Assembly (NCBI GenBank): GCA_009840175.1
Contig: VXOI01000141.1
Location: 1-62,307 of the forward strand
From: Chloroflexota bacterium
GTDB taxonomy: Bacteria > Chloroflexota > Dehalococcoidia > Lucifugimonadales > UBA3495
Direction of reading: 5' to 3'
Length of the DNA stretch: 62,307 nt
Under the pieces are notes generated by a model. It was not told the DNA's origin. It was given only the letters and a program-made list of their open reading frames with translations, and did no database searches. Below are positions 1,535-3,594 of this stretch, one piece after another. Every line of letters begins with the position of its first letter. Positions within the stretch are counted from its first letter, which is position 1. The translations under genes were made by a program, and so were the position numbers.

Positions 1535-1987
1535 ATGAAGCCCGAAGAATTCGTCGCCAAGTGGCGCAATGTCCAGTTCGGAGAGAAGCAGGCATCTCAG
1601 GAGATGTTCCTGGACATCTGCGCCCTGGTGGGGCATGACACGCCCGTCGCATTTGGCAACCCCGAGGTATTCACCTTCGAGAAGTGGGTGCCGGGCGGCT
1701 TCGCCGACGCCTATTACGAAGAGCATTTCGGCTGGGGGTTCAAGGGTGACGACGCCGACCTGGACGCCGGGCTGAACCAACTGCTGCGCTACCAGGTACA
1801 CCTGAAGACGCCGCCGCTGCTCATCGTATCCTCCTTCCGCTCCGTACAATGAATTCTTGCGTTGCTGGCCAACGCCCACGCGACGCTGGATGCCGCCGTA
1901 GCCGCCGCCTACGGCTGGCCGGCCACGCTGCCGGACGCCGAGATACTGGAGCGGCTGCTGGCGCCGAACCTGGAACGGAGCGAATGA
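1535..1987 (+). pseudogene. Internally deleted MmeI-like type IIL restriction-modification enzyme relic: N-terminal domain followed in the same frame by the C-terminal tail
   Basis: 1535-1852 encodes MKPEEFVAKWRNVQFGEKQASQEMFLDICALVGH...FTFEKWVPGGFADAYYEEHFGWGFKG..LDAGLNQLLRYQVHLKTPPLLIVSSF (MmeI N-domain pattern). After TGA at 1850-1852 the same frame reads ILALLANAHATLDAAVAAAYGWPATLPDAEILERLLAPNLERSE*, resembling the C-terminal end of the same family. The central methylase region is absent. Confidence 0.8.
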
Positions 1988-1990
1988 ACC

Positions 1991-2332
1991 ATGCAACCGA
2001 AAACACAGAAGACGGAAGAACTGGAAGCCAAGTTCAACGAGCTAGCGGAGCAAATCAGAAGGGACACCGGCTTTTCATCCCATATCGCCGATAGGGTCAA
2101 ACATCCGGCGTACCAGGAAGTCGTCGGGATGGGTGAAGCAGTGCTCCCGCTGATTTTCCGCTACATGGAAGAAGGCAAGGGCGGCTTCTGGTTCCACGCC
2201 CTCAGCGCTATCACTGGGGCAGACCCAACGACTCCTCCCCGACGCATTAACGAGGATTTCGTAGCGTTGAATATCTCAGAAATGGAGCAAGCCTGGCTGA
2301 TCTGGGCCCGGCAACAGGGGTATCGTTGGTAA
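1991..2332 (+). CDS. Conserved hypothetical protein, 113 aa (module protein P, copy 1)
   Basis: ORF with pattern FNELAEQ...HPAYQEVVGMGEAVLPLIFRYMEE..FWFHALSAITG...AWLIWARQQGYRW; paralogous to 2821-3162. Confidence 0.85.
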   Translation: MQPKTQKTEELEAKFNELAEQIRRDTGFSSHIADRVKHPAYQEVVGMGEAVLPLIFRYMEEGKGGFWFHALSAITGADPTTPPRRINEDFVALNISEMEQAWLIWARQQGYRW

Positions 2333-2335
2333 AGT

Positions 2336-2764
2336 ATGGAGTTGTACTTTGAAGAGTTTTTCCCAAACTTGGCGGCAAGCGGATACGAAATCACCAGCGA
2401 AGCCAGCTCAATATATAACTGCATCGCTTGGGCTGCGGGAGATACCACGGATTGGTGGGACTTGCATCCGCGGGCGTATTGGCCTCCCTCCGTCCCACGA
2501 TCATGGAGAGTCGAAGCGCTGGTGCAAGTCTTTACCGAGAGAGGGTATTCGATTTGCGAGAATACCGAAAAGGAAACGGGATACGAAAAAGTCGCCATTT
2601 GCGCCAGAAACGGCCTCTGGGAGCACGAGGCGAGACAACTCGATGATGGTCGGTGGACCAGCAAGATAGGCGAGTTTGAAGACATTACCCATCCGTCTCC
2701 GGAAGACCTGACCGGCGAGCTTTACGGCGAGGTGCATTGCATCATACGCCGTCCGTCGGCGTAA
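2336..2764 (+). CDS. Conserved hypothetical protein, 142 aa, DUF7689-like (module protein Q, copy 1)
   Basis: FPNLAASGYEITSEASSIYNCIAWAAGDT...YWPPSVPR...GYEKVAICARNGLWEHEARQLDDGRWTSKIGEFEDITHP...YGEVHCIIRRP; starts 3 nt after the stop of P; paralogous to 3163-3594. Confidence 0.85.
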   Translation: MELYFEEFFPNLAASGYEITSEASSIYNCIAWAAGDTTDWWDLHPRAYWPPSVPRSWRVEALVQVFTERGYSICENTEKETGYEKVAICARNGLWEHEARQLDDGRWTSKIGEFEDITHPSPEDLTGELYGEVHCIIRRPSA

Positions 2765-2820
2765 CCGGGTGTCCGACTCAACAGGAACGGCCCCTTCGAC
2801 AAACCCAGGAGGGATAGACG

Positions 2821-3162
2821 ATGCAACCGAAGACGCAGAAGACGGAAGAACTGGAATCCAGTTTCAACGCGCTGGCGGATAAGTGGGAAAAAGACATGGC
2901 GTTCTATTCCCTCATGGCGCAAAGGTCTCAGCATTACGCATATCAGCTAATCCTTGGCATGGGAAAGGAAGCCATCCCGCTCATCCTGCGCCGAATGGAG
3001 CGGCAGGGCGGTCACTGGTATCACGCCCTGGAAACCATCACGGGAATGCCGTCTCCGACCGGCAAAACCAAGCTGAAAACCGAGGGATGGTATTCGGTCG
3101 ATGTAAAGGAAGTAAGCGCCGCCTGGCTGCAATGGGGCCGTGAACAGGGGTATAGCTGGTAG
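2821..3162 (+). CDS. Conserved hypothetical protein, 113 aa (module protein P, copy 2)
   Basis: Same first 12 residues (MQPKTQKTEELE) and same GMGKEAIPLILRRMER..HWYHALETITG...AWLQWGREQGYSW pattern as 1991-2332. Confidence 0.85.
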   Translation: MQPKTQKTEELESSFNALADKWEKDMAFYSLMAQRSQHYAYQLILGMGKEAIPLILRRMERQGGHWYHALETITGMPSPTGKTKLKTEGWYSVDVKEVSAAWLQWGREQGYSW

Positions 3163-3594
3163 ATGAGCGTCGAAGAGATAGAAAGCGCCTTCCCGAATCT
3201 GGCCGGTTCCGGGTACGAAGTCACCGGCGACGCTTCAGCGGAATACAACTGCACCGCTTGCGCCCTTGGGACTACTAATCGGCAGTGGGACTACGATCGT
3301 CCGCACGGTTACTGGCCGCCGTCTCTACCCCGGAATCAGGAAGTAGGTACGCTGATGAGGTTGTTCGCCAGTGAAGGCTTTTCGCTTTGCGAAGACGACG
3401 CGCCGGACCCTAGTTACGAAAAGATCGCTCTCTACGCCTTCGTCGGCCAGTTTACCCACGTGGCAAGACAGCTTGAAGACGGCCAGTGGACCAGCAAGCT
3501 GGGCGACCTGGAGGTTATCACCCACCCTTCTCTGTCCAGTCTGGCCGGGGGCATTTACGGCAACATCCACTGCATAATGCGCCGCCCGTTATAA
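3163..3594 (+). CDS. Conserved hypothetical protein, 143 aa, DUF7689-like (module protein Q, copy 2)
   Basis: Start codon directly abuts the stop of P copy 2; FPNLAGSGYEVTGDASAEYNCTACALGTT...YWPPSLPR...SYEKIALYAFVGQFTHVARQLEDGQWTSKLGDLEVITHP...YGNIHCIMRRP. Confidence 0.85.
   Translation: MSVEEIESAFPNLAGSGYEVTGDASAEYNCTACALGTTNRQWDYDRPHGYWPPSLPRNQEVGTLMRLFASEGFSLCEDDAPDPSYEKIALYAFVGQFTHVARQLEDGQWTSKLGDLEVITHPSLSSLAGGIYGNIHCIMRRPL

What the first reader, a model, noticed from the sequence alone, without database searches (positions are those of the whole stretch)
1991..3594. Tandemly duplicated, tightly coupled two-gene module (P-Q)-(P-Q) of uncharacterised small proteins
Seen in sequence: a ~113-aa protein (P) is followed at once by a ~142-aa protein (Q), and the pair occurs twice in a row. 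The P-to-Q junction is 3 nt in copy 1 and 0 nt in copy 2. The first 36 nt of both P genes differ at only 2 positions, while the rest of P and Q has diverged to moderate identity by eye. P resembles a short HEAT-like helical protein (GMGxxxxPLIxRxMExxxxFWxHALxxITG); Q looks like the DUF7689-type family. Inference: such obligate small-gene coupling, duplication with divergence, and a location against a restriction-modification relic fit a defence, toxin-immunity or toxin-antitoxin-like pair. This is my best candidate for an undescribed system in the window.
Basis: partly seen in the sequence, partly recalled or inferred. Interest (0 to 1): 0.72.

Follow-up and report, generated by a model that had tools for sequence, protein, structure and literature searches.

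The report
Protein pair docked onto restriction enzymes
Two small proteins, a helical 'holder' and a likely cysteine enzyme, are always encoded side by side in many bacteria; in this bacterium's relatives the holder is repeatedly welded onto different DNA-restriction enzymes, which suggests a little-known add-on weapon or lock of anti-virus defence (not yet tested in the lab).

Summary
In detail: P1-Q1-P2-Q2 lie at 1991-3594 (P 49%, Q 52% identical between copies; junctions 3 and 0 nt). Q is DUF7689 (Pfam E 1.8e-36); P matches no library family. P lies directly upstream of Q in 80/80 genome contigs and 18/18 viral contigs, in many phyla, usually with overlapping or abutting reading frames. Q has invariant Cys29 and His97 (94/94) and a confident model (pLDDT 95) whose weak best fold matches are papain/NlpC-P60-type cysteine hydrolases. 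The unexpected part: in 18 of the 80 genome contigs, and in 10 loci of the window's own family (some the same records), P is the C-terminal domain of a restriction-modification (RM) enzyme, across at least five RM architectures. The window's pairs follow an internally deleted type IIG RM gene; a same-genus genome keeps it intact immediately before P. Intact Q was never found without P, whereas P survives Q's loss, and in the family Q stayed intact in 10/10 RM-fused loci but decayed in 7/11 unfused ones. Best reading: P tethers and restrains Q, a latent thiol-hydrolase effector docked on RM enzymes (guard or addiction module). Pairing and RM docking are shown; toxicity and trigger are inferred.

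The parts
1535..1852 (+). Relic: first 105 codons of a type IIG restriction-modification gene, ended by TGA
   Evidence: 68% identical to residues 2-106 of the intact type IIG enzyme L142:4154-6850; PADLOC REase_MTase_IIG E 1.6e-8
1863..1987 (+). Relic: last ~41 codons of the same type IIG gene, same frame; its stop lies 3 nt before the ATG of P1
   Evidence: 74% identical to residues 859-897 of L142 IIG
1991..2332 (+). P1, 113-aa all-helical protein (adaptor/inhibitor candidate)
   Evidence: no Pfam, NCBIfam or PHROGs hit; helices in model of P1-Q1 read-through
2336..2764 (+). Q1, 142-aa DUF7689 protein with invariant Cys29 and His97 (putative papain/NlpC-P60-like thiol hydrolase)
   Evidence: Pfam PF24738 E 1.8e-36; invariance 94/94; AlphaFold2 pLDDT 94.6; Foldseek
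2807..2813 (+). AGGAGGG, probable ribosome-binding site of P2; Q2 has no intergenic space for one of its own
   Evidence: read from sequence
2821..3162 (+). P2, second copy of P, 49% identical to P1
3163..3594 (+). Q2, second copy of Q, 52% identical to Q1; ATG abuts the TAG of P2; Cys and His conserved
   Evidence: sister of Q1 in the tree, SH-aLRT 86

Best explanation
P and Q form an obligate two-protein module. P is a small helical adaptor that binds Q and holds it in check; Q is a divergent papain/NlpC-P60-fold cysteine hydrolase (Cys29-His97) acting as a latent, costly effector. In the window's lineage P serves as the dock that places Q on restriction-modification enzymes, either as the C-terminal domain of the RM protein or as the gene right behind it. 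The likely purpose is a guard or addiction device: while the RM-P complex is intact Q is silent; when a phage anti-restriction factor disables RM, or the RM gene is lost, Q is freed and stops growth. In the window the type IIG gene has been deleted internally and the duplicated pairs persist because P is a separate gene here and can still restrain Q. Shown: obligate pairing, P-RM fusions, conserved Cys/His, orphan-P/no-orphan-Q asymmetry, relic. Inferred: P-Q binding, hydrolase activity, toxicity, trigger.
For: P directly before Q in 80/80 genome and 18/18 viral contigs, 11/11 in a cyanobacterial sample, 10/11 in Planctomycetota, the exception being a Q fragment without Cys. P and Q fused in one polypeptide, in reverse order, on Bacteroides plasmids. 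P fused to the C-terminus of RM enzymes: HSDR_N-N6_Mtase-Methylase_S, Mrr/ResIII-methylase, type IIG, type III Mod, Eco57I-like. All RM-linked Qs fall in one 29-row clade containing Q1 and Q2 (SH-aLRT 81) although their RM partners are of different kinds. The same-genus syntenic locus has an intact type IIG gene 4 nt before P. Own family: Q broken 7 times and absent 3 times with P intact, never the reverse; Q intact in 10/10 RM-fused versus 4/11 unfused loci, Fisher p 0.004. Q: C29 and H97 94/94; fold matches mostly NlpC/P60, DUB, CHAP. dN/dS 0.1-0.3 for P and Q. Precedents: PrrC silenced by a linked RM enzyme and released by a phage anti-restriction peptide (PMC2610378); a small papain-like protease acting as an antibacterial toxin (PMC12136450, abstract only).
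Against: No test of toxicity, binding or catalysis. Fold matches to PDB are weak (best E 0.025, TM about 0.3-0.4). pTM of the P1-Q1 read-through model is only 0.73, so an interface is not established. About half of the sampled loci have no recurrent partner; 24 have TIGR04255 upstream rather than RM. The Bacteroides Q-P protein appears to be a lipoprotein, hard to reconcile with a cytoplasmic RM guard. Some Q frameshifts may be MAG sequencing errors; loci are not independent, and two of the truncated Qs look like one event.
Confidence: 0.4

Rival explanations
1. P-Q is a free-standing toxin-antitoxin-like pair (P antitoxin, Q thiol-hydrolase toxin) that repeatedly lands in defence loci; the RM fusions are one lineage's way of hitch-hiking and RM is neither sensor nor target.
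For: Gene order, overlapping frames, orphan P but no orphan intact Q, patchy distribution, many solo pairs, partners other than RM.
Against: All RM-linked pairs form one clade that exchanged RM partners and Q stays intact preferentially when P is fused to RM, which suggests function together with RM. P shows no DNA-binding domain in Pfam.
Confidence: 0.25
2. Q is a regulatory protease or amidase that P recruits to its partner: it processes or removes the RM enzyme (restriction alleviation) or modifies the partner protein, and is not a killer.
For: P placed at the C-terminus of large multidomain RM enzymes, partners from several families, peptidase-like fold.
Against: Partners share no obvious common substrate; P-Q persists without any partner (window, solo pairs). 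Q decay where P is separate does not by itself distinguish this from the guard model.
Confidence: 0.2
3. P-Q is an ordinary accessory enzyme pair (for example a cell-wall or small-molecule amidase with its chaperone) and the RM link is a lineage-specific accident.
For: Nearest folds are cell-wall NlpC/P60 endopeptidases; a Q-P lipoprotein exists in Bacteroides; many loci have housekeeping neighbours.
Against: P1 and Q1 show no signal peptide by eye; several RM architectures carry P as a fused domain; distribution is sporadic, not housekeeping.
Confidence: 0.1

Closest known systems
PF24738 (DUF7689)
   Same: Q1 and Q2 are clear members (125.9 and 114.2 bits against a cut-off of 22.6).
   Different: The family carries no function; the obligate partner P, the Cys/His dyad and the RM link are not described in it. 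No paper in the held library names DUF7689.
NlpC/P60 and papain-like cysteine peptidases
   Same: Cys at the start of a helix followed by His on a strand in a small alpha+beta fold; most best fold matches are of this kind.
   Different: No sequence match to their Pfam models; best PDB E only 0.025; third catalytic residue unclear (S109, K110 or H119).
PrrC-EcoprrI (RM-linked anticodon nuclease)
   Same: A separate effector gene tied to an RM enzyme, proposed here to be kept silent by it as PrrC is (PMC2610378).
   Different: PrrC is a tRNase; Q has a hydrolase-like fold, needs P as dock, and occurs with several RM architectures and with no RM at all.
Type II toxin-antitoxin pairs
   Same: Two small translationally coupled genes; first gene found as orphan, intact second gene not.
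   Different: No PADLOC, NCBIfam or Pfam toxin or antitoxin match; no DNA-binding domain in P; toxicity untested.
Type IIG RM enzyme (PADLOC REase_MTase_IIG)
   Same: The gene upstream of P1 is a relic of one; the same-genus locus has the intact enzyme (E 3e-254).
   Different: In the window about 750 residues are deleted, so no RM function is expected from this gene.

Membership tests
DUF7689 (PF24738) | Pfam profile match above the gathering score | tested here: met
   Q1 125.9 bits, Q2 114.2 bits, cut-off 22.6
Papain-like / NlpC-P60 thiol hydrolase superfamily | Conserved nucleophile Cys and base His in order Cys-then-His | tested here: met
   C29 and H97 94 of 94
Papain-like / NlpC-P60 thiol hydrolase superfamily | Significant fold similarity | tested here: inconclusive
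   PDB best E 0.025 (DUB), many NlpC/P60 below; BFVD best E 3.7e-4 to an unnamed protein
Papain-like / NlpC-P60 thiol hydrolase superfamily | Catalytic activity | not testable with these tools
   needs enzyme assay
NlpC/P60 Pfam family | Sequence profile match | tested here: not met
   only DUF7689 reported at E up to 1
Type II toxin-antitoxin | Small, adjacent, coupled genes | tested here: met
   98/98 adjacency; most gaps between -17 and +4 nt
Type II toxin-antitoxin | Toxin gene not found intact without antitoxin; orphan antitoxins tolerated | tested here: met
   P-only loci L142, L219, L220; no intact Q without P
Type II toxin-antitoxin | Second gene toxic, first neutralises | not testable with these tools
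   needs expression test
PrrC-type RM guard | Genetic linkage of effector to an RM enzyme | tested here: met
   P fused to RM proteins or directly behind them
PrrC-type RM guard | Effector is a PrrC homologue (anticodon nuclease) | tested here: not met
   Q is DUF7689; no nuclease match
PrrC-type RM guard | Released by an anti-restriction factor | not testable with these tools
   needs phage or anti-restriction protein expression
Known anti-phage systems in PADLOC-DB 2.0.0 | Profile match of P or Q | tested here: not met
   no match for Q; P2 only 11 bits to part of PglZ
HEAT-repeat proteins | Tandem antiparallel helix pairs, recognisable by profile or fold | tested here: inconclusive
   P model all-helical; no Pfam hit and no fold match to the P part
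Type IIG RM system (upstream gene) | Intact endonuclease-methyltransferase polypeptide | tested here: not met
   only residues 2-106 and 859-897 remain in the window's genome

The most novel reading that the evidence does not exclude
P is a portable docking domain by which very different RM enzymes (type I-like, IIG, type III) carry the same cysteine-hydrolase effector Q, a general 'dead-man switch' that fires when restriction is inhibited or lost; TIGR04255 and other upstream proteins would be alternative sensors plugged into the same P-Q core.
Probability: 0.3. Interest if true: 0.85.

Novelty: new variant of a known kind. Interest (0 to 1): 0.62.

Why it matters
If right, it gives a function to an uncharacterised protein family, adds a cysteine hydrolase to the effectors tied to restriction systems (so far exemplified by the tRNase PrrC), and shows that unrelated RM enzymes share one plug-in back-up. 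It would also predict that phage anti-restriction proteins trigger these cells' own arrest, a directly testable claim. Even without the guard mechanism, an obligate pair whose first member is fused to at least five RM architectures is a clear lead for defence genomics.

Tried and rejected
Pfam, NCBIfam, PHROGs and PADLOC searches with P gave nothing usable: DUF1257 E 0.12 and part of PglZ E 0.02 are chance-level. Sequence profiles of P and Q against all PDB chains: no relative. Q was not found in the phage collection and P not on plasmids by direct search. Papers naming DUF7689 or TIGR04255: none held. I considered that TIGR04255 is the true obligate partner: rejected, only 3 of 42 TIGR04255 places in 199 Planctomycetota genomes lie by P-Q. 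I considered that the RM relic is an assembly break: the missing middle is not elsewhere in the 95%-complete genome, so a deletion is more likely, though a MAG error cannot be excluded. A Q remnant in the same-genus locus L142 was sought and not found. One Pfam call failed on frame coordinates and two genome searches on the centre argument.

Full report
What is there. The window carries P1 (1991-2332), Q1 (2336-2764), P2 (2821-3162) and Q2 (3163-3594) on the + strand. P1 and P2 are 49% identical and Q1 and Q2 52%. In each copy P and Q are in one frame, divided by a single stop codon. P2 has a good ribosome-binding site (AGGAGGG, 2807-2813); Q2 begins on the base after the stop of P2. dN/dS between copies is about 0.3, so both copies stayed under purifying selection. 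In a tree of 94 Qs the two window Qs are sisters (SH-aLRT 86): a local duplication.

What precedes it. 1535-1849 matches residues 2-106 and 1865-1981 residues 859-897 of a type IIG RM enzyme; the part between is nowhere else in the genome. In the same-genus genome G049 the syntenic locus (L142, same amidase and flavin-oxidoreductase genes downstream) has the intact 914-aa ORF (type IIG, PADLOC E 3e-254) with its stop 4 nt before a P, then a second P, and no Q. Another G049 P-Q copy (L141) is preceded by a short stretch resembling the tail of that RM gene and its Q is split by an insertion that carries a large ORF on the other strand, probably a transposase. So the window is a decayed member of an RM-P-Q arrangement.

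Obligate pairing. I searched Q as a profile. In all 80 genome contigs and all 18 viral contigs kept, P lies directly upstream of Q on the same strand (the one weak case, L129, was recovered with a deeper profile). The two frames usually overlap or abut (most gaps -17 to +4 nt). In an even sample of 146 cyanobacterial genomes all 11 Qs have P next to them, and 9 of the 10 P-bearing genomes have Q. In 199 Planctomycetota genomes 10 of 11 Qs have P; the exception is a fragment without the Cys. On Bacteroides conjugative plasmids one polypeptide holds Q then P behind a lipoprotein-like leader (P part E 3e-10, Q part E 6e-23). Fusion in the opposite order argues that the two proteins work in contact.

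RM docking. In 18 of the 80 genome contigs P is the C-terminal domain of a long ORF. These ORFs are RM enzymes: HSDR_N plus N6_Mtase plus Methylase_S (L037, L065; L047 and L068 cluster with them), Mrr plus ResIII helicase-methylase of about 1800 aa (L054 group, 12 loci), type III Mod (L096, where Q sits between Mod-P and a downstream ORF matching a type III Res model) and an Eco57I-like methylase (L076). In the window's own family 10 loci have P fused to an RM protein, including a further type IIG architecture (L154) and a 1742-aa enzyme (L155) that matches a type IIG model over its full length with P added after the model's end. Some of these family loci are the same records as database contigs, so the two counts are not additive. 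Unfused family loci often still have a methylase gene beside P, divergently oriented (L141, L158, L160). All RM-linked Qs fall into one 29-row clade together with Q1 and Q2 (SH-aLRT 81), in which the kind of RM partner changes. Members of that clade come from MAGs labelled Chloroflexota, Gammaproteobacteria, Entotheonella and Cyanobacteria, which fits horizontal transfer of the cassette (misbinning of MAGs is the alternative).

Other partners. 24 of the 98 loci have a TIGR04255 gene directly upstream (profile hits, cluster), 7 a ~227-270-aa protein of unknown family, mostly in cyanobacteria (two fused to P), 2 an AAA/HEC-04-like ATPase; the rest show no recurrent partner. TIGR04255 mostly occurs away from P-Q (3 of 42 places). 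The module is therefore not RM-specific in general; RM is the partner in the window's clade.

What Q is. 94 aligned Qs keep Y27, N28, C29, A31, W49, H97, S109, K110 and G131 without exception, and H119 in 93. AlphaFold2 gives pLDDT 94.6, with C29 at the start of a helix and H97 in the following sheet. Foldseek matches are weak but mostly of one kind: a chlamydial deubiquitinase, NlpC/P60 endopeptidases, a SUMO protease; in the viral library NlpC/P60 and CHAP proteins. I read Q as a divergent papain/NlpC-type thiol hydrolase; activity is not shown. P is predicted all-helical at high confidence; pTM of the joined model is 0.73, which leaves the P-Q interface open.

Selection pattern. In the family, P is intact while Q is broken in 7 loci (transposon, frameshift, truncation) and absent in 3 more; P broken with Q intact was not seen. 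With equal decay per codon about 44% of hits should fall in P. Q is intact in 10 of 10 RM-fused loci and broken in 7 of 11 unfused ones (Fisher p 0.004). The caveats are MAG sequencing errors and relatedness: L159 and L160 look like one event; leaving one out gives 6 of 10 against 0 of 10. The pattern says that Q is dispensable or costly on its own, P is harmless, and Q is kept when tied to RM.

Mechanism. The simplest account is that P binds and restrains Q and, as an RM domain, parks it on the restriction enzyme. Loss or inhibition of RM would free Q. That makes RM loss costly (addiction) and gives a second line when phages block restriction, as for PrrC, which is silenced by its linked RM enzyme and released by the phage T4 peptide Stp (PMC2610378). 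A small papain-like protease acting as an antibacterial toxin has a precedent (PMC12136450, seen as an abstract). The rivals are a plain toxin-antitoxin pair, a tethered protease that controls the RM protein itself, and an unrelated housekeeping enzyme. Present data cannot separate the first three; the tests listed can.

Verdict. I find no description of this module in the libraries and papers available here, but its logic resembles known RM-linked effectors and TA pairs, so I rate it a new variant of a known kind.

Noticed in passing
L162:6827-7825 (Bacteroides xylanisolvens plasmid NZ_CP041231.1; 11 Bacteroidaceae plasmids): A 332-aa lipoprotein-like protein joins Q then P in one chain, two genes upstream of a MAC/perforin gene on conjugative plasmids.
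   Followed up: partly
L096:2629-9455: Type III RM locus of a SAR202 MAG in which the Mod protein ends in P and Q sits between Mod and a downstream ORF that matches a type III Res model only in part.
   Followed up: partly
L063:4782-5528 and 23 other loci: TIGR04255 ('sporadic' family of unknown function) lies directly upstream of P-Q; in Planctomycetota most TIGR04255 genes are elsewhere, so what its other neighbours are is an open question.
   Followed up: partly
L095:4719-5402, L078:5132-5950, L107:5129-5950: An uncharacterised ~227-aa family upstream of P in cyanobacteria, in two genomes fused to P; no Pfam, NCBIfam or PADLOC match for L095.
   Followed up: no
L141:7651-9894: In the single-contig same-genus genome G049 Q is split by an insertion of about 1.8 kb while P is intact; none of this genome's P-Q loci keeps a full Q.
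   Followed up: yes
window 1991-2026 and 2821-2856; L142:6855; L141:7297: The first bases of P (ATGCAACC.AA.AC) are much more conserved between copies than the rest of the gene, together with the junction after the RM stop codon; gene conversion or a translation signal are possible causes.
   Followed up: partly
L219:4593-5540: P is fused to a 315-aa protein of unknown family downstream of a DPPF-motif DNA methylase gene, with no Q.
   Followed up: partly
L102, L108, L114, L064, L057, L070: Similar RM-P-Q cassettes in MAGs labelled Cyanobacteria, Entotheonella and Gammaproteobacteria: horizontal transfer or misbinning.
   Followed up: no
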